A stretch of 30,577 nt of DNA from a virus. The position numbers were made by a program, and so were the translations under genes. Where the stretch lies: the IMG/VR virus record IMGVR_UViG_3300036781_000128, positions 1-30,577 of that record. The stretch is one strand, 5' to 3'. How positions within the stretch are numbered: position 1 is the first letter of the stretch; each line of letters opens with the position of its first letter. Below are positions 5,428 to 30,577 of this stretch, one piece after another. The notes under the pieces were generated by a model. It was not told where the DNA came from, ran no database searches, and saw only the letters and a program-made list of their open reading frames with translations.

Positions 5428-5745
5428 ATGGCCGTGCGCAAGACCCCCCTTCGTTCCGTCGCCCCGGACGAGAAGCCCGAGCCCGAAGCCAAGGTTGAAA
5501 GGCAGACGGTGGCTGAGGCTGCCGCCACCGGAGACCACCGCGCGTTGCTGGTCTCCATGCGTGAGCGGATCGCGCAGACGGTGAGCAACCCCGACTGTCC
5601 GCCGCGTGACCTCGCCGCCCTAACCCGTCGACTCCAGGACATCGCGAAGGAGATCGACGCGATCGATCTCCGCGCTCGGCAGGAGTCCAAGGAGGACGGC
5701 GATGACGAAGCGCCCGACGAGAGCTGGGACGAGGAAGCTCTCTGA
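5428..5745 (+). CDS. Terminase small subunit
   Basis: A 105-aa protein. The ATG at 5428 is chosen because GAGGGGG lies just upstream; the earlier ATG at 5380 has no such site. The central motif MRERIAQTV...CPPRDLAALTRRLQ followed by IAKEIDAID is characteristic of actinophage small terminases and is likely the DNA-recognition and oligomerisation helices. The C-terminus is very acidic. It recognises the packaging site and hands DNA to the large subunit, whose ATG lies inside this gene's last 44 bp. Confidence 0.85.
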   Translation: MAVRKTPLRSVAPDEKPEPEAKVERQTVAEAAATGDHRALLVSMRERIAQTVSNPDCPPRDLAALTRRLQDIAKEIDAIDLRARQESKEDGDDEAPDESWDEEAL

Positions 5746-7201
5746 GGTTGCCCGCCACATCGTCAAGCCGAGCGGCATTGTCGCCACGGGTTGGCCGAAG
5801 GTCGAGAAGACTGCTCGCGAGAAGCTCGGGATCGCGTTCGATGAGTGGCAGTGTGGTGCTGGCCGACTGACTCTGGCCCGCCGCGCTGACGGCAAGTTGG
5901 CCGCGATGGTCGGCGGCGTCGGGATGTCGCTGCCTCGTCAGGTTGGGAAGACCTACCTACTCGCCGGTCTACTCTTCGCGCTCTGTGTCGACAACCCGGG
6001 CCTGCTGGTCATTTGGTCGGCGCACCACTCGAAGACGCACAACGAGACGTTCTTGGCGATGCAGGGTTTCGCGAAGAGGCTCAAGGTCGCGCCTTACGTC
6101 GAGCAGGTGTACACCGGCTCGGGCGACGAGGCTGTCGTGTTCGTCAACGGGTCCCGCATCCTGTTCGGCGCCCGGGAACGTGGCTTCGGTCGAGGCATTC
6201 CCGGTGTTGACGTGCTGGTGATGGACGAGGCTCAGATCCTCTCCGACAAGGCGCTGGAGAACATGCTGGCGACTCTCAACACGTCGCAGCTCGGGTTGGC
6301 GCTCTATATCGGCACCCCTCCGCGACCGGAGGACAACTCGGAGGCGTTCACGCGCATCCGGACCGAGGCGCTGTCGGGCGATTCGGATGATCTGGTCTGG
6401 ATCGAGTGTGGGGCTGATCCCGACGCCGATCCCCACGACGAGAAGCAGTGGGCCATGGCGAATCCGTCGTTCCCTCATCGCACTCCCCGCGAGTCCATCC
6501 TGCGGCTGCTTCGGCGGCTCAAGGAGGACGGCTTCCGCCATGAGGGCCTCGGCATCTGGGATGAGGTTGGCGCCGGCATCCTCCCGGGATGGTCCGGCCT
6601 GTTCCTCGACGTCGATGACGACGAATTCGAGTGGGAGCTTCCACAGCCGTCGGCGGTTGGCATCGCGGTTGGCATAGGTGGTTCTCACGGCTCCATCGCC
6701 TCGGCTGACGCCTGGCCCGACGGCGTGCTGATCGGCGAGCCTTCGATCGACACCCTCGATGGGCCAACCGATAGTCAGACGGACCTCACTGGCGCAGTCA
6801 ATCTCTCGGCGGTCGACAGGCGATCGGGCACTGACTGGATCCCGGCCGAGGCGAAGCGCATCCAAGACCTGTACGGCTGTGACGTGGTGATCGACGAGAA
6901 GTGTCCGGACGGCACGCTCATCGAGCGGCTGGAACAGGCCGGGGTGTATGTGACCGTCATGGCGCTGACCGACGTCGTGCAGGGCTGCTCGGAGCTGGTG
7001 AACCGGGTCCGCGAGGGTCGCGTCACCCACCAGCGCACCACCGAGCTCGACGACGCGATCGAGGTTGCCATCTGGCGCTCGGTAGGCGATGGCCGCCAGG
7101 TCTTCGGCCGCCAGAAGTCATCCGGCCCGATCGACATGCTCGAGGCCGCCACTGCCGCCCTATGGGGCGCACTGAACCCGCAGACACCTGCGATCTACTA
7201 G
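5702..7201 (+). CDS. Terminase large subunit
   Basis: A 499-aa packaging motor, the usual length. The ATG at 5702 has a strong GGAGG 7 bp upstream. The Walker A variant SLPRQVGKT is at 76-84 and Walker B VLVMDEAQ at 171-178, with IGTPPRP near 203-209 as motif III. The C-terminal nuclease domain keeps VVIDEKCPDG (395-404) and ELDDAI (448-453). Where related terminases have the first catalytic Asp (AVDV or SVD), this one reads GIAVGIGGSHGSI (320-332), so that Asp is Gly. The ATPase should translocate DNA; the nuclease may be weak or use another residue. Portal and protease genes follow directly. Confidence 0.93.
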   Translation: MTKRPTRAGTRKLSEVARHIVKPSGIVATGWPKVEKTAREKLGIAFDEWQCGAGRLTLARRADGKLAAMVGGVGMSLPRQVGKTYLLAGLLFALCVDNPGLLVIWSAHHSKTHNETFLAMQGFAKRLKVAPYVEQVYTGSGDEAVVFVNGSRILFGARERGFGRGIPGVDVLVMDEAQILSDKALENMLATLNTSQLGLALYIGTPPRPEDNSEAFTRIRTEALSGDSDDLVWIECGADPDADPHDEKQWAMANPSFPHRTPRESILRLLRRLKEDGFRHEGLGIWDEVGAGILPGWSGLFLDVDDDEFEWELPQPSAVGIAVGIGGSHGSIASADAWPDGVLIGEPSIDTLDGPTDSQTDLTGAVNLSAVDRRSGTDWIPAEAKRIQDLYGCDVVIDEKCPDGTLIERLEQAGVYVTVMALTDVVQGCSELVNRVREGRVTHQRTTELDDAIEVAIWRSVGDGRQVFGRQKSSGPIDMLEAATAALWGALNPQTPAIY

Positions 7202-14012: not shown

Positions 14013-14741
14013 ATGAGTGACGCACTGGCGAGGCTTCAGGCTTCGACCGCGGACATGGTTCCGCAGGCGACCGTGGAGACCTGTCTGGCCCAGGGTGTGG
14101 TGAAGCGGGTCCAGGCGTTGGCCGACGAGTTGTCCGAGATGCAGCTTGCCGCCTTCCGTGACGCCGCGGAGGACGCACCCTCGGACAAGCCGGTCCGGAA
14201 GATGAATCAGGGTCATGACCCGCGCATTGACGAGATTCAGGCCGAGCTCGAGTCACTTCAGGATGTGATGCGTGCCCACACGGGCCGGGTCACGGTCGCC
14301 GCAACCATCAGCCAGGGTGAGTGGCGTCGTTGGGCGGATGCGAACCCGGCTCGCGAAGAGGGCCGCGACTCGAAGGGTCGCCCGGTCGTGAGCGCCTACG
14401 ACATCGGTGTCACTGGCGGGTTCTGTGATGGGACGGCGCTGCTGGCTCGGCTCGGTGACTTCGTGACCGAGTGGAACGGCGAGCCACTATCTCCCGGTCA
14501 GTGGGATTGGCTGGCCGAGAAGATGCCGATGGGTGACCAGAAGCAGGCGGCCCGGTCGGTGGTGTCGTTCTATGAGGTTGAGGGGGCCAAGGCGGTCCCA
14601 AAATCGCGGAGCGTCTCGTCCACGACGCCCCCGAAGTCGGCCGCCTCCGATTCGCCCGAGACCGCGGCATCTCCAGAAAGCGGAGCCTCGGATGGGAGCC
14701 CGCCGAGCGACATGAGCACTTCGACGCCGACGGGGTCCTGA
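14013..14741 (+). CDS. Tail assembly chaperone, short form
   Basis: A 242-aa product in frame 0, starting at ATG 14013 after CAGGAG. The folded part (1-197) has helical segments and ISQGEWRRWADANPA (about 98-112), the pattern of first chaperone ORFs. From 198 on it is a Ser/Thr/Pro-rich tail that looks disordered. This matches phages in which most ribosomes stay in frame and a few shift at CCCAAAA to make the long form. It helps assemble the tail tube on the tape measure and is not in virions. Confidence 0.85.
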   Translation: MSDALARLQASTADMVPQATVETCLAQGVVKRVQALADELSEMQLAAFRDAAEDAPSDKPVRKMNQGHDPRIDEIQAELESLQDVMRAHTGRVTVAATISQGEWRRWADANPAREEGRDSKGRPVVSAYDIGVTGGFCDGTALLARLGDFVTEWNGEPLSPGQWDWLAEKMPMGDQKQAARSVVSFYEVEGAKAVPKSRSVSSTTPPKSAASDSPETAASPESGASDGSPPSDMSTSTPTGS

Positions 14742-15136
14742 CCGGCTGGACCATCGTCACCCGCGAGCCCGAGTGGGACGACGCGGAACGTGACGCGATG
14801 GTGGCGCTGGACATGTACGAGGCGGACCTGTGCGGCGGATGCAGGCTGCCGACGTCGATACGTCAGGACCCGTCGAACCTGTTTCGCATCCGGCACGACG
14901 TCTGCCCGGTGTGCGCCCAGATGGCACCAGCGGGACGAGCTCAGGCCGACGCCGACAAGAAGGCCCATGAGGCGCTGGGCAAGGACCCGTCACCACTGGC
15001 CAAGCTGCCCGGAGACGGGCGGACGTCGTTGCTAGTGCGGGTCGGGTCAGAAGCCCGCGATGCTGCCGTACCAAGCAATGCTGGCGACGATCGCGACAAC
15101 CATCATGGCGACACCGTGACTCGGGCGTCTGGTTAG
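14013..15136 (+). CDS. Tail assembly chaperone, frameshifted long form
   Basis: Residues 1-197 come from frame 0 and 177 more from the -1 frame (14603-15136), giving about 374 aa. The added part holds RGISRKRSLGWEPAERHEHF, VTREPEWDDAERDAMVALDM and a zinc-like LCGGC (near 14830) with CPVC near 14909. These are typical of the second chaperone ORF in actinophages. No good start codon with an RBS precedes the -1 part, so it is made by frameshifting. Its last 90 bp lie opposite the end of the DUF2510 gene, suggesting that the natural C-terminus was replaced when that gene arrived. Confidence 0.82.
14597..14603 (+). other. -1 ribosomal slippery site CCCAAAA
   Basis: In the chaperone frame the bases read C CCA AAA, exactly X XXY YYZ. 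After a -1 slip the next codon is ATC at 14603, and the frame stays open to 15136. The homopolymer stretch is rare in this GC-rich sequence and the two reading frames both encode recognisable chaperone segments, so the shift is well supported. Confidence 0.88.
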
Positions 15137-15361
15137 TAGTACGCAGCCGATGATGAATCCGACGATCGGCAGCAGGATCGCGGTCACCCATCCTGCGGTA
15201 ATCAGTCCCTCGCTGACCGGCTGGTGTCCGGCCGTCTGCATCCTCTGCGGCGCACCGGGGGCCACGTGGTCTGTCCACGTTGCCCCATCCCAGTAGCGCT
15301 GCGTTCCTGCCATCGCGGGGTCTGAGTACCACCCCGCGGGCGCCTGTTCCTGGTCCGTCAC
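15047..15361 (-). CDS. DUF2510 two-TM membrane protein
   Basis: A 104-aa protein on the opposite strand inside the late operon. Start taken as GTG at 15361, with a second in-frame GTG at 15397 as alternative. Residues 8-33 form DUF2510 (APAGWYSDP, then RYWDGATWTDHV). The linker is followed by two hydrophobic segments at 53-76 and 83-102, with an Arg-rich turn (TRRP) between. DUF2510 commonly precedes membrane helices in actinobacterial proteins; its function is unknown. It has no late-operon partner, and its orientation suggests expression from its own promoter in the lysogen, perhaps altering the host envelope or blocking superinfection. Confidence 0.8.
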   Translation of the reverse strand: MTDQEQAPAGWYSDPAMAGTQRYWDGATWTDHVAPGAPQRMQTAGHQPVSEGLITAGWVTAILLPIVGFIIGCVLLTRRPSHGVAMMVVAIVASIAWYGSIAGF

Positions 15362-15397
15362 CTCGGCAGCGTAGACCTCCGGGGCTCCATCTGACAC
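15362..15397 (-). promoter_or_regulatory. Candidate promoter of the DUF2510 gene
   Basis: On the - strand, GTGTCA (15392-15397) resembles TTGACA in four of six bases, and TACGCT (15368-15373) fits the actinobacterial TAnnnT -10 box, 18 bp away. Six bases separate the -10 from GTG 15361, which would make a leaderless transcript. It matches the spacing seen at two other - strand genes here, but short motifs occur by chance, so support is limited. Confidence 0.35.
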
Positions 15398-15415: not shown

Positions 15416-18400
15416 ATGGCTGTACGCAACGAGTCTGTGCGCCTCTCTCTCGATGATGACTTCACGACCAAGATGGCCCGGGTCGCTGCAGTGACGGCAC
15501 TTGCCAACAAGGAGCTGAAGAACCTCGACGGCACCTCGATCAAGGCCGCGAAGAGCATCGGCCCGCTGGGCAACGAGATCGACAGGGTCGGCACCTCGGC
15601 GCAGCGGACAACCAAGTCCATCGGCCCGCTCGGCAACGAGGTCGAGAAGGTCGGGACCAAGGCGCGCGGCACTGACAGCGACATCAACAAGCTGACCGGC
15701 CGACTCGCGCTGTTCCGGGACGCGGCATTGATTCTCGGTCCGGCCGGTATCCCGCTGGGTGCGGCCGGGGTCGGTGGGCTCATCGGTGTAACAGCGCAGC
15801 TCGGCGCGCTGGCCGGCGGCCTCGGAGTGACACTGCTGGCGGTTCAGGGGCTCGGTGATGGGCTGAAGGCGCTGGACGCCTACCAGCTCGACCCGACCAC
15901 CGAGAACCTCGCCAAGCTGAACCAGCAGATGGAGGCGCTCGGCCCTAGTGGCGAGCACTTCGTCCGGTTCCTCGACTCGCTCGAGCCGGAGTTGAAGTCG
16001 CTACAGCAGGCGGCCCGTGACGGGCTACTGCCCGGCGCCGAGGAGGGCATCGACCGACTGCTCCAGCGTCTGCCCGAACTCAAGTCGCTGATCGGTGGGT
16101 TCGCCGACACCCTGGGTGACCTGTCCGCCGACGCCGGGAAGGCGTTGGGTGGTCCGCGGTTCGATGCGTTCTTCACCTACCTGCGGACCACTGGCATCCC
16201 GATTCTCGACGACACGTCGCGGACCATCGGCAGCCTGGCCGAGGCTGCAGCGAACGTGTTCGTGGGCTTCGGTGGCGTCTCTACGGACTTCAGTGGCGGC
16301 CTGCTGAAGTTCTCGCAGGGGCTGGCCGAGGCGTCACGGAACCTCGACTCGAACGCCGGGTTCCAGGAGTTCCTGGGCTACATCGAGACCAATGGCCCGG
16401 TGGCGTTGCAGACCGTCGAGTCGCTGGCGAACGCGTTCCTCCAGATCGTGGAGGCGGCGGCTCCGCTGGGTGGTCCGGTGCTGAAGGCGGTCGGTCAGTT
16501 CGCGGACGCTATCGCTCGCATCGCCGACTCGGACCTCGGTACGCCCATCTTCGCGGGGCTCGCGGCCCTGGCGCTGCTGAACCGGACGCTGCTTGTCACC
16601 GAGAAGCTGACGGCTTCCACTTTCGGCGGCCCGGCTGTGGTGAAGATGAAGGCGTACACCAGCGGGCTGCTGCAGGTCACGTCCGCGCAGGAACGCGCAC
16701 AGATGACGGCGACCGAGCTGGATGCCGCGAACGCCAAGACCTCCGGGAACTTCGGCAAGCGTGCGGGCCAGGCTGGCTTGCTGGCAGTGTCGCTGTCCGG
16801 GGTGGCTGACTCGGCTGGACTGTCGAACACGGCGATGCTGTCGATGGTCGGTCCGTGGGGTACGGCCGCCGGTCTGGCGCTGGACTTCATGCACGGCACC
16901 GACGACCTCAACGCCTCCATCGAGGCGCTCGACACTGCGGCGGCATCTGGAGACATAGACCAATTTGCGGCGGCACTGAAGAACGCCAATGGCCAACTTG
17001 AGACCATCAAGGCCAACACGGTCCTGGGCACCTCGTTCCTCGGTGACTTCGCGGGCGGCCTCATCAACGCCATCGCACCGGCGTCGAATATCGACAAGTT
17101 CAAGGGCCTCCTGAGCGGCGACACGAAGGACGCCGAGGCGGACGTCAAGAGGCAGCAGGAGGCATACGACCGCCTCGTCGGTTCTCAGGACCGGGTCGCA
17201 GCCGCCGCCCGGGAGACCATCGGCCCGATGCAGGCATTCCGGCGGGCCTCGCTGGACAACACAGAGGCGGCGCAGGCCGAGGCCGACGCTCTCCAGGACG
17301 CCACGGACGCGATGCGCGACAAGCGGTCCGAGGCGCTGCGGGCGGTCAACGCCGAGTTGAACTACCAGGCCGCCATCGACGATGCGAACCAGGCCATCAA
17401 GGACAACGGCAAGGCGTTCGACACCACGACCGAGAAGGGCCGTGCGAACCGGTCGGCGCTCTACGCGCTCGCCGACGGGTGGAACCAGCAGTCGGATGCG
17501 GCGAAGAACGCGAAGGGGTCCCTCAAGGAGGCCCGGGACAACTTCATCGACACCGCGACTCAGATGGGCGCGACCGCGGAGCAGGCGAAGCGGCTGGCGG
17601 ACCGGCTGTTCGAGATCCCGCCGAAGCGCAACACCCAGATCACGGTCGACGGCATCGACAACGCGATCAACAAGGCCGAGGGCCTCAAGGCGATTCTCGA
17701 CAGCCTCAAGAACAAAGACATCAACGTCGCCCTGCACTACCAGACGCTGGGCAACAAGCCGAACGCGCCGCTTCCGGGGGCCTCAGGCAACAGCGCTGAC
17801 GGCGGCAGTGTCCCGAAGTCCGGGCGCCCCTACGCGGACCGTTACCACTACATGCTCGCCGACGGCGAAGAGGTCATCTCCAACCGTCACGGCCAGGCCG
17901 ATCGGCACCGGAGTCTGCTGAAGGCGATCAACGCTGGCGGGCTCGCCGATGGTGGGACGGCGGGACGGGGTAACCAGTCGTTCCTGACCTTCGGGTCCCC
18001 AGCGCTGAACCAGCTACTGGGTGCGGCGACCACTGCGGCCCAGGCGCTCAAGCAGCTCGACAAGCAGTTGGAGAAGTCACAGACGTCGCTGGAGGCCGAG
18101 CGTCAGAAGCGGGACGACGTGGCCTCCCAGATGGCTGACCTCGCCTCGACGGTCGCCTCGGGGTTGCGGTCGGACATCTTCGCTCAGCCAGACAATCCGT
18201 TCACGTCTGCGGTGGGTGGCGTGGCTGGTGCGAACGCGACCCTTCAGTCGGACATCGCCCGTGCGGGTCAGTTTTCCGACCTCACCACACAGCTCCAGGG
18301 CATGGGTCTCCACGGTGGCGCGTTGCAGTCGTTGCTCGAGCAGGCCGCGCAGTCGGGCGACAACTCGCTGCTAACCCAGTTCGTGAACTCGCCTCAGGCC

Positions 18401-18727
18401 GACCTGGGCAAGTACCAGAGCCTCTACGACCAGCGAGAGCAGGGCCTTGCGGCGGCCGGTCAGACGGCCTCCACTGCCGTCTTCCAGCAGTCGTTGGACG
18501 CGGCGAACAAGGCGTATGCCGACCAGCTCGCGGAGACGCGAGGTCTGCGTCACGACGTGAAGGCGGTACAGGCCGCCATCGACCGCATGGACAAGAACAA
18601 CCAGACCGCGACCCACACGGCCGCAAACCAGAGCGCTCACGTCGTGGCTGACGGCGTGACCAAGGGTGTGAACGGCGCGGGCGGCAAGGGCAAGCGCAAC
18701 GGCGTCTATGCAAAGGGGCCTCGGTGA
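15416..18727 (+). CDS. Tape measure protein
   Basis: A 1103-aa protein; ATG 15416 follows GGAGG at 15404-15408. Long helical, Ala-rich stretches include a tandem-like SIGPLGNE motif (about 44-85), a Gly-rich hydrophobic block around 105-150, another hydrophobic patch near 379-395, and coiled coils near 600-660 and 880-920. The C-terminal part has YADRYHYMLADGEEVISNRH, common in siphophage tape measures. It sets tail length: at about 1.5 angstrom per residue, roughly 165 nm. It may also help DNA enter the cell. It overlaps the next gene by 4 bp (GTGA). Confidence 0.92.
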   Translation: MAVRNESVRLSLDDDFTTKMARVAAVTALANKELKNLDGTSIKAAKSIGPLGNEIDRVGTSAQRTTKSIGPLGNEVEKVGTKARGTDSDINKLTGRLALFRDAALILGPAGIPLGAAGVGGLIGVTAQLGALAGGLGVTLLAVQGLGDGLKALDAYQLDPTTENLAKLNQQMEALGPSGEHFVRFLDSLEPELKSLQQAARDGLLPGAEEGIDRLLQRLPELKSLIGGFADTLGDLSADAGKALGGPRFDAFFTYLRTTGIPILDDTSRTIGSLAEAAANVFVGFGGVSTDFSGGLLKFSQGLAEASRNLDSNAGFQEFLGYIETNGPVALQTVESLANAFLQIVEAAAPLGGPVLKAVGQFADAIARIADSDLGTPIFAGLAALALLNRTLLVTEKLTASTFGGPAVVKMKAYTSGLLQVTSAQERAQMTATELDAANAKTSGNFGKRAGQAGLLAVSLSGVADSAGLSNTAMLSMVGPWGTAAGLALDFMHGTDDLNASIEALDTAAASGDIDQFAAALKNANGQLETIKANTVLGTSFLGDFAGGLINAIAPASNIDKFKGLLSGDTKDAEADVKRQQEAYDRLVGSQDRVAAAARETIGPMQAFRRASLDNTEAAQAEADALQDATDAMRDKRSEALRAVNAELNYQAAIDDANQAIKDNGKAFDTTTEKGRANRSALYALADGWNQQSDAAKNAKGSLKEARDNFIDTATQMGATAEQAKRLADRLFEIPPKRNTQITVDGIDNAINKAEGLKAILDSLKNKDINVALHYQTLGNKPNAPLPGASGNSADGGSVPKSGRPYADRYHYMLADGEEVISNRHGQADRHRSLLKAINAGGLADGGTAGRGNQSFLTFGSPALNQLLGAATTAAQALKQLDKQLEKSQTSLEAERQKRDDVASQMADLASTVASGLRSDIFAQPDNPFTSAVGGVAGANATLQSDIARAGQFSDLTTQLQGMGLHGGALQSLLEQAAQSGDNSLLTQFVNSPQADLGKYQSLYDQREQGLAAAGQTASTAVFQQSLDAANKAYADQLAETRGLRHDVKAVQAAIDRMDKNNQTATHTAANQSAHVVADGVTKGVNGAGGKGKRNGVYAKGPR

Positions 18728-20514: not shown

Positions 20515-21532
20515 TGGTCCCGCTCACCACCCCACAGGTCTGGGTCGACGGCCGCCCCCTGTCATCACTGGCCTCGTGGGGCGACCTGAAGATCACGCAC
20601 CGTTGGCCCTACGGATGCTGGGCTCTGGACTGGGGGATGGCGCTAAAGCCATACCAGCGTCCGATCGGGCTCAAGGCTGACGTGCCGGTCGAGGCTCGGA
20701 TGGGGTCGGCGGTCATCTGGTCCGGTGTCCTGGTCCGCCCGGATTGGGACGCCGGGACCTTCGAGGCCGACGGTCTGGCCCGTCAGGGCGAGGAGACGCT
20801 GTGTCTGACCTCTGACGGCGAGACCACCTCCACCCCGGACACCGCTATCGACGCGGCTATCGCCCGAGGTGCGGTCGACTGGATCCGGCGTAGCTCGCTG
20901 TCCTCGGCGGCGTTCGCTGACGGCGGCTCCACGGCGGACCTGAACTACGTGACCGCGCTCCTCGACGCCTGGTCATCGGCGCAGGGCAAGCGGTGGGGCG
21001 TCAACGCCCGCCGCGAGGTGTACGCCGTCGCGGACCCGACCACGCCGTCGATCTACATCCGTCCCGGGACCGGCGTGCTGGGTGTCGCGGCCGAGGCGAT
21101 CGCGGGCACTGTCGTCGGCGCCTACTACGACGCCGACCACGTGCCGCACCGGGTCTCTGTCGGGTCCGGGCGCCCCGAGGTCGGGGTGGGGCTGGCGAAT
21201 CGTGGCGCGCTCGACTCGACCTCGGCGACCGCGATCATCACCGGCATCCGCGACCAGCTCCAGGCTGTCACCGGGTGGACCAACGGGATCACCGTCACCG
21301 CCGACCAGGTGACCGCGCCCGGTGGTGAAGGCATGGCGCTGGACCGCGTCGTGGCCGGGGAGATGAGTCGTCTGCTCGGGCTGCGTGACGAGCGCGGCGC
21401 ATCCGCGCAGACCGACATCGTGCTCGGCGAAACCATCTGGGACGTCACCGCCGGCACCGTCCAGTGCAACCCCGTCGGGCTCTCCGATCGGTCCTTGTCC
21501 GGTGTCATCGAAGCTGCGGGGGGCGAGCTGCT

Positions 21533-21536
<4 letters not shown>
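20514..21536 (+). CDS. Minor tail protein (hub-like)
   Basis: A 340-aa protein from the ATG at 20514, sharing its first base with the upstream stop. Early Trp-rich strands ([32 protein letters not shown]) and later [21 protein letters not shown] resemble tail hub/baseplate proteins of actinophages. It likely sits at the tail tip connecting the distal protein with the fibre. No enzyme motif is seen. It overlaps the fibre gene by 4 bp. Confidence 0.7.
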
Positions 21537-23605
<2,069 letters not shown>

Positions 23606-29982: not shown

Positions 29983-30577
29983 ATGCGGACACCCAAGAAA
30001 CACGTGGCCGAGGACGGCTCGACGACATGGCGCGTCCGCTACCGGCTCGGCAGTACCGAGACCTCGGAGACCTTCCCGCGTGAGACCGACGCCGACACGT
30101 TCGCGCGCATTCTGGGCCGAGGGCGTGACGCCGACGTGGCCGATGCGCTCGCTTGGCTGGCCAGCAAGAAGGTCGAGCGCGAGATGGCGACATTCGGCCA
30201 GTGGTTCGAGACATGGGTGTCACAGCTCACCGGCATCACACCTCGCACCCGAGACGACTACCGCGCCATGCGGCGCCGCTACCTGACCGACCTGGACTTA
30301 CTGCCGCTGACCCTGGTGTCCCGAGCTCACGTCGCCGCGATCGTCAACCGACTGGAGGCCGACGGTAAGGCGCCCAAGACCATCAAGAACGCGGTCAACA
30401 TGCTATCCACGGTCATGGCAACCGCCGTCGACGACGGCCTGATACCGCGCAACCCCGTGCGCCGGGTCCGCCTACCTCGCCCACATCCCGACGAAGACGC
30501 CGTGCTGTTCCTTACCCACGAAGAGGCGGCGCTCGTCATCGCCCACACCGCCGAGCGCTACCGGCCGCTGGTGACGT
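29983..30577 (+). CDS. int: Tyrosine integrase, N-terminal part (truncated by the window)
   Basis: ATG 29983 opens a frame that runs off the end: 198 residues seen. Residues 13-45 (STTWRVRYRLGSTETSETF) are an AP2-like arm-binding domain, and 70-160 (TFGQWFETWVSQLTG, TPRTRDDYRAM, KTIKNAVNMLSTVMATAVDDGLIPRNP) the core-binding SAM-like domain of phage tyrosine recombinases. The catalytic R...HxxR...Y part lies beyond the window, with only its first helix (LTHEEAALVIAH) visible. Being beside the core it is the likely integrase for that site. Confidence 0.9.
   Translation, partial: MRTPKKHVAEDGSTTWRVRYRLGSTETSETFPRETDADTFARILGRGRDADVADALAWLASKKVEREMATFGQWFETWVSQLTGITPRTRDDYRAMRRRYLTDLDLLPLTLVSRAHVAAIVNRLEADGKAPKTIKNAVNMLSTVMATAVDDGLIPRNPVRRVRLPRPHPDEDAVLFLTHEEAALVIAHTAERYRPLVT

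What the first reader, a model, noticed from the sequence alone, without database searches (positions are those of the whole stretch)
15047..15397. Antisense DUF2510 membrane gene buried in the tail operon
A two-TM DUF2510 protein is encoded opposite the late genes between chaperone and tape measure, overlapping the frameshifted chaperone's last 90 bp. Phage genomes rarely interrupt this place. It looks like a moron with its own promoter, possibly a superinfection-exclusion or envelope-altering factor.
Basis: partly seen in the sequence, partly recalled or inferred. Interest (0 to 1): 0.7.

Follow-up and report, generated by a model that had tools for sequence, protein, structure and literature searches.

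The report
Antisense membrane gene in phage tails
A temperate phage of actinobacteria carries, back-to-front inside its tail genes, a small membrane-protein gene with its own promoter-like signal; many related phages keep a different small membrane-protein gene, or none, at exactly this spot, so it is probably an add-on gene used by the dormant phage, perhaps to keep rival phages out.

Summary
A minus-strand ORF ending at 15047 encodes a DUF2510 domain (Pfam E = 1.5e-12) plus two TM helices, between the frameshifted tail chaperone and the tape measure protein (TMP); the chaperone frame overlaps it by 90 bp. The likely start is GTG at 15361, not 15397, because a TACGCT box lies exactly 6 nt upstream.

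The spot is not rarely interrupted in this tail lineage. Of 57 IMG/VR contigs with a related chaperone, 32 have a slot that, wherever translated, holds an antisense two-TM ORF; 21 have no gene; 4 are undetermined. Flanks of occupied and empty contigs are up to 91% identical, so the gene is an accessory cassette. 25 of 31 slot genes, the window's included, have TANNNT 6-7 nt before the start, a leaderless-promoter signature. Slot genes have dN/dS of roughly 0.1-0.3. The DUF2510 protein is not homologous to the other occupants. Phage DUF2510 genes elsewhere sit beside the integrase; Sbash 39 and Butters gp36 are expressed in lysogens.

Closest functional precedent: HK97 gp15, a superinfection-exclusion moron at the same spot. 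Reverse genes here were already noted in Gordonia cluster DN. Moron status is well supported. Exclusion is plausible but untested, and deleting Sbash 39 caused no defence loss.

The parts
15047..15361 (-). DUF2510 + two-TM membrane protein gene, 104 aa, probable GTG start at 15361 (an alternative start at 15397 gives 116 aa)
   Evidence: PF10708 E=1.5e-12; TM segments at residues 59-77 and 84-102 of the 104-aa form; start supported by the TACGCT box 6 nt upstream
15368..15373 (-). Predicted -10 box TACGCT, 6 nt upstream of GTG 15361 (leaderless-mRNA promoter signature)
   Evidence: Same spacing of TANNNT in 25 of 31 slot genes; background 0.29% per position. No sigma-70 consensus match at the stricter threshold
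14963..14980 (-). Weak terminator-like hairpin with a T-rich tail downstream of the antisense gene, inside the chaperone T frame
   Evidence: 5-bp stem; 2 sites found in the region against a shuffle mean of 0.3; weak
14013..14741 (+). Tail assembly chaperone G (upstream flank)
   Evidence: Position after the tail tube protein (PF25595); CCCAAAA slip site at 14597-14603
14603..15136 (+). Chaperone T frame reached by a -1 frameshift; its last 90 bp run into the antisense gene
   Evidence: tblastn to Brevibacterium and Arthrobacter phage chaperones; T homologues from L028, L030, L031 align to about residue 141 and then diverge; GC3 drops in the last 90 bp
15416..18727 (+). Tape measure protein (downstream flank)
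   Evidence: PHROG tape-measure hit; 48% identity to L030 over the first 300 aa, where the slot is empty
29983..30576 (+). Tyrosine integrase N-terminus, cut by the contig end (indicates a temperate phage)
   Evidence: PF22022 E=3e-6

Best explanation
The gene is an accessory (moron) cassette occupying a recurrent antisense slot between the frameshifted chaperone and the TMP of temperate actinobacteriophages. It is most likely transcribed from its own host-RNA-polymerase promoter as a leaderless mRNA, so it can be made from the repressed prophage while the surrounding tail operon is silent. The product sits in the cytoplasmic membrane through a two-helix hairpin, with a small DUF2510 domain at its N-terminus. 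Its most likely role is to act in the envelope of the lysogen to hinder DNA entry by phages with a related TMP, as HK97 gp15 does from the same genomic spot. Shown here: gene, position, accessory status of the slot, promoter-like signal, purifying selection on the slot family. Inferred: expression in lysogens (about 0.7). Inferred by analogy only: exclusion at DNA entry (about 0.35).
For: Domain and TM. The slot is bimodal in 57 viral contigs: 21 without a gene, 32 occupied; every occupied slot that was translated has an antisense ORF with two TM segments. Annotated and unannotated equivalents in Persistence, Bridgette type (17 records), Hestia, Seahorse, Auxilium, RadFad, Isolde and Footloose. 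Occupied L055 and empty L044: 91% nt identity in T, 85% in the TMP start, with the TMP leader TAACACAGGAGGCCTC kept. TANNNT at 6-7 nt in 25 of 31 genes; the first gene of the Persistence integrase operon, gp40, has the same TAGACT-6-ATG arrangement. dN about 0.04-0.32 against dS about 0.33 to above 1. Phage DUF2510 genes lie next to the integrase in Charlie, Butters, Sbash, Manu, Babsiella and YungMoney; Sbash 39 is transcribed in the lysogen and Butters gp36 is reported expressed. HK97 gp15 sits between the frameshifted chaperone and the TMP, blocks DNA injection, and HK022 tail tube/TMP hybrids escape it (PMC10883804).
Against: No expression data exist for this phage. The window's -35 is poor, and the -10 box keeps only the TA...T bases. 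The DUF2510 protein has no detectable homology to other slot proteins or to HK97 gp15, and its charge pattern (N-terminus -4, loop +2) predicts the opposite topology from the other occupants. Deleting Sbash 39 left the susceptibility profile unchanged against the phages tested. The cluster DN occupant Periwinkle gp17 has no predicted TM segment.
Confidence: 0.6

Rival explanations
1. A lysogenic-conversion gene without antiphage function: a host-type DUF2510 two-TM protein captured from an actinobacterial chromosome that adjusts the envelope or fitness of the lysogen.
For: DUF2510 query hits in 84 of 397 actinobacterial genomes, including a host DUF2510 plus membrane-helix protein (L098). The Sbash delta-39 lysogen had normal phage susceptibility.
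Against: Other slot occupants are phage two-TM proteins without DUF2510. The position next to the TMP matches a known exclusion moron.
Confidence: 0.35
2. The antisense transcript is the functional part: it dampens chaperone/TMP expression, or leaky late expression in the lysogen, by RNA pairing or transcription interference.
For: Transcription from 15361 would cross the T 3' end and run against the late operon.
Against: Slot genes are under strong purifying selection at the protein level. Close relatives without the gene keep the same T/TMP arrangement. A transcript starting near 15361 begins 55 nt short of the TMP start codon and runs away from it, so it would not cover that start.
Confidence: 0.1
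3. A lytic-cycle membrane protein (holin, antiholin or lysis timer) that happens to be on the opposite strand.
For: Small two-TM proteins can be holins (general knowledge).
Against: Antisense to the late operon, with its own host-type promoter signal; presence/absence polymorphism. The DUF2510 relatives sit in integrase operons, apart from the lysis cassette.
Confidence: 0.05
4. A shadow ORF or decaying insertion with no function.
For: The T frame runs 90 bp into it, an untidy junction compared with the 4-nt stop overlap of most slot genes.
Against: Intact DUF2510 domain, intact TM hairpin, GC3 of 0.77 in its own frame, promoter-like box at the family spacing.
Confidence: 0.05

Closest known systems
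HK97 gp15 moron (superinfection exclusion)
   Same: Same genomic spot, between the -1-frameshifted tail chaperone and the TMP; small membrane protein; accessory (annotated as moron product)
   Different: HK97 gp15 is on the late-gene strand with a putative terminator, has one TM helix and 62 aa, and shows no sequence similarity to the window protein
Antisense two-TM genes at the chaperone/TMP junction of Arthrobacter phages (Persistence gp17, Bridgette gp17, Hestia gp18, Seahorse gp19, Auxilium gp18) and Microbacterium phage Footloose gp15
   Same: Position, strand, two TM helices; in Bridgette, Isolde, Footloose and most IMG/VR occupants the same leaderless promoter signature
   Different: No sequence homology to the window protein; no DUF2510; positive N-terminus, so opposite predicted topology; T and antisense stops usually overlap by 4 nt instead of 90; Persistence, Hestia, Seahorse and Auxilium have a TATGAT box further upstream
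Reverse genes between chaperone and TMP in Gordonia cluster DN (Periwinkle gp17-19; PMC9476921)
   Same: Position and strand; gp17 also overlaps the chaperone stop by 4 nt
   Different: gp17 is 142 aa without a predicted TM helix; up to three genes in the slot
DUF2510 membrane proteins of mycobacteriophages (Charlie gp33, Butters gp36, Sbash gp39, Babsiella gp32, Manu gp35)
   Same: N-terminal DUF2510 followed by TM helices, minus strand, lysogeny-associated
   Different: They lie next to the integrase, not in the tail operon; similarity is largely limited to the DUF2510 domain (Butters gp36: 59% over 27 aa)

Membership tests
DUF2510 (Pfam PF10708) | Score above the curated cut-off | tested here: met
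   47.4 bits against a cut-off of 24
Phage moron | Inserted between genes that are adjacent in related phages | tested here: met
   Closest relatives L028, L030, L031 have no gene at the junction; an occupied/empty pair with up to 91% identical flanks exists for the slot family
Phage moron | Own promoter | tested here: inconclusive
   TACGCT-6-GTG matches the slot-wide pattern, but no strict sigma-70 consensus and no transcript data
Phage moron | Own terminator | tested here: inconclusive
   Weak hairpin at 14980-14963 on the minus strand
Phage moron | Expressed from the prophage | not testable with these tools
   Only indirect: Sbash 39 and Butters gp36 are reported expressed in lysogens
HK97 gp15-type superinfection exclusion | Position next to the TMP and predicted membrane location | tested here: met
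HK97 gp15-type superinfection exclusion | Sequence homology to gp15 | tested here: not met
   No alignment with E <= 100
HK97 gp15-type superinfection exclusion | Blocks DNA entry of related phages | not testable with these tools
   Needs an experiment
Antisense two-TM slot family (Arthrobacter and IMG/VR phages) | Position, strand, two TM helices, TANNNT 6-7 nt before the start | tested here: met
Antisense two-TM slot family (Arthrobacter and IMG/VR phages) | Sequence homology with other members | tested here: not met
   blastp and an HMM of 30 slot proteins find nothing significant; positional analogue only

The most novel reading that the evidence does not exclude
The chaperone/TMP junction is a dedicated, swappable exclusion locus: unrelated small membrane proteins are exchanged behind a leaderless prophage promoter, each kept next to the tape measure gene it acts against, so that target and exclusion factor travel together. 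HK97 gp15 and these actinophage genes would then be convergent solutions in the same spot.
Probability: 0.25. Interest if true: 0.7.

Novelty: new variant of a known kind. Interest (0 to 1): 0.48.

Why it matters
If the slot encodes exclusion factors, it gives a simple rule for finding new superinfection-exclusion genes across actinophages (look for the antisense small ORF between the frameshifted chaperone and the TMP), and it offers matched occupied/empty phages for a direct test of whether exclusion factors are linked to the TMP they act on. The leaderless promoter signature also gives a way to spot prophage-expressed genes hidden in late operons.

Tried and rejected
Close relatives of the window's TMP, minor tail protein and DUF2510 protein in IMG/VR: none by single-protein pattern scans; a chaperone-T alignment was needed. 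Head-module relatives (prophiGD91-2, MooMoo) have a different tail module and no gene at the junction, so they were not used to judge the slot. DUF2510 in 17 records of related contigs: one hit (L094, from L034's contig), outside the slot and without a TM helix in the listed ORF. PDB sequence search: nothing significant. AlphaFold2 model of the protein: pLDDT 60, pTM 0.26, three short strands and a helical hairpin; too weak to search structure libraries with. PHROGs for slot proteins: nothing significant. A sigma-70 consensus scan found no promoter; the signal was found only by comparing slot genes. A shared motif upstream of Arthrobacter slot genes (TTGAGTTGTCGGG) occurs once in the Persistence genome, so it is not a series of repressor sites. 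Chromosomal search for the chaperone T part: one hit in 397 actinobacterial genomes, not followed. Literature search for DUF2510 found no paper. The original HK97 gp15 paper is not held.

Full report
Observation. The minus-strand frame ending at 15047 is open to 15958 and carries GTG codons at 15397 and 15361. The product has a DUF2510 domain (E = 1.5e-12) and two strong hydrophobic segments. It lies between the tail chaperone and the TMP. The chaperone is a G/T pair: a CCCAAAA heptamer at 14597-14603 lets ribosomes slip by -1 into a frame that ends at 15136, and 90 bp of that frame lie inside the antisense gene. Third-position GC in the T frame falls from 0.84 to 0.53 over those 90 bp, and homologous T proteins align only to about residue 141 of the T frame, after which their tails of about 17-23 residues diverge. 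The overlap is therefore best read as run-on of the T frame, not as conserved double coding.

Is the spot special? Tail relatives were reached through the T part of the chaperone. In GenBank, Arthrobacter phages Persistence, Bridgette and 16 like records, Hestia, Seahorse, Auxilium and RadFad and Microbacterium phage Footloose carry an annotated reverse gene here. Isolde has an unannotated one. All of these that were translated have two TM segments. Among 57 IMG/VR contigs, 21 have no gene (gap up to 41 bp, or overlapping frames), 32 have an occupied slot, and 4 could not be scored. Every occupied slot that was translated has an antisense ORF with two TM segments; L038 was recovered by reading the frame, while L039-L041 share its 301-bp gap and were not translated one by one. 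Several contigs are near-duplicates, so these counts are not independent. As a control, composition-preserving shuffles of the slot genes gave no two-TM ORF in 3100 trials, and the plus strand of the slots has none.

Accessory status. L055 (occupied) and L044 (empty) share 91% nt identity in T and 85% in the first 900 bp of the TMP. The TMP ribosome-binding leader TAACACAGGAGGCCTC is kept in both, and the cassette is what differs. L051 and L055 share the promoter region but have different ORFs behind it. The window's own closest relatives by T and TMP (L028, L030, L031) have no gene at the junction.

Promoter. In 25 of 31 slot genes a TANNNT hexamer lies 6 or 7 nt before the start codon (23 at exactly 6), against a background of 0.29% per position. 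For nine genes I set the start codon myself, mostly from the conserved N-terminus of homologues. This spacing is what a leaderless mRNA needs (general knowledge of bacterial promoters). Persistence gp40, first gene of the leftward integrase operon, has the same arrangement, TAGACT-tgcggc-ATG. In the window, TACGCT lies 6 nt before GTG 15361; only 5 of 1134 candidate starts in the window have such a box, and three of the other four lie at 28.1-28.3 kb, towards the integrase end. The window box keeps only the TA...T bases, and no strict sigma-70 promoter was found, so this part rests on the comparison.

Selection. Slot gene pairs have dN about 0.04-0.32 with dS of 0.33 to above 1: these are real, conserved proteins. 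The window gene itself has no close relative to test.

What the protein is. The window protein is not detectably related to other slot proteins nor to HK97 gp15. Its relatives are DUF2510 proteins: detectable in 84 of 397 actinobacterial genomes sampled and in 206 phage records at a permissive threshold. In six phages examined (Charlie, Butters, Sbash, Manu, Babsiella, YungMoney) the DUF2510 gene lies next to the integrase. Sbash gene 39 is transcribed in the lysogen, and its deletion changed neither lysogeny nor susceptibility to the phages tested (PMC6426596). Butters gp36, which has a DUF2510 domain, is reported as expressed from the prophage (PMC7542560). A low-confidence AlphaFold2 model shows three short strands and a helical hairpin. 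Charge distribution suggests the opposite topology from the other occupants, which argues against an identical mechanism.

Mechanism. The genome of HK97 carries Gp15, annotated 'moron product', precisely between the frameshifted chaperone and the TMP. It is a predicted inner-membrane protein that blocks DNA injection, and hybrids with the HK022 tail tube and TMP escape (PMC10883804). The exclusion lipoprotein of TP-J34 is likewise overcome by changes in the TMP (same source). By analogy I propose that the window gene is a prophage-expressed membrane factor acting at DNA entry. Accessory membrane gene: about 0.9. Lysogenic expression: about 0.7. Exclusion at entry: about 0.35. A plain lysogenic-conversion role is about as likely.

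Novelty. Reverse genes at this junction were already noted for Gordonia cluster DN (PMC9476921), and HK97 gp15 is a known moron there. In the papers I could search I found no description of the recurrent two-TM cassette, of its leaderless promoter signature, or of a DUF2510 protein in this spot; most subscription papers were not searchable. I therefore call it a new variant of a known kind.

Noticed in passing
window 14597-14603: CCCAAAA slippery heptamer at the G/T chaperone junction, giving a -1 frameshift into the frame that ends at 15136.
   Followed up: partly
L024 2195-2791: Microbacterium phage Footloose has an HNH endonuclease gene on the plus strand between the antisense slot gene and the TMP, so the slot also attracts a homing-type gene.
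   Followed up: no
L024 2045-2105: An inverted repeat TTACCGCC...GGCGGTAA overlaps the predicted promoter of the Footloose antisense gene and could be an operator.
   Followed up: no
window 28092 and 28348, minus strand: Two further minus-strand starts with TANNNT 6 nt upstream (TATGAT and TAACCT), near a DUF6221 frame and about 2 kb before the integrase; candidates for prophage-expressed genes.
   Followed up: no
window 5702-7201: Terminase is 72-77% identical to prophiGD91-2 and MooMoo over its first 280 residues, while the tail module matches Arthrobacter/Brevibacterium-type phages: a mosaic junction between head and tail modules.
   Followed up: partly
window 21464-23605: Large tail-fibre-like protein with collagen repeats (PF01391).
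   Followed up: no
L020 1896-2075, minus strand: Unannotated antisense two-TM gene in Arthrobacter phage Isolde (MH910037), missing from the GenBank record.
   Followed up: yes
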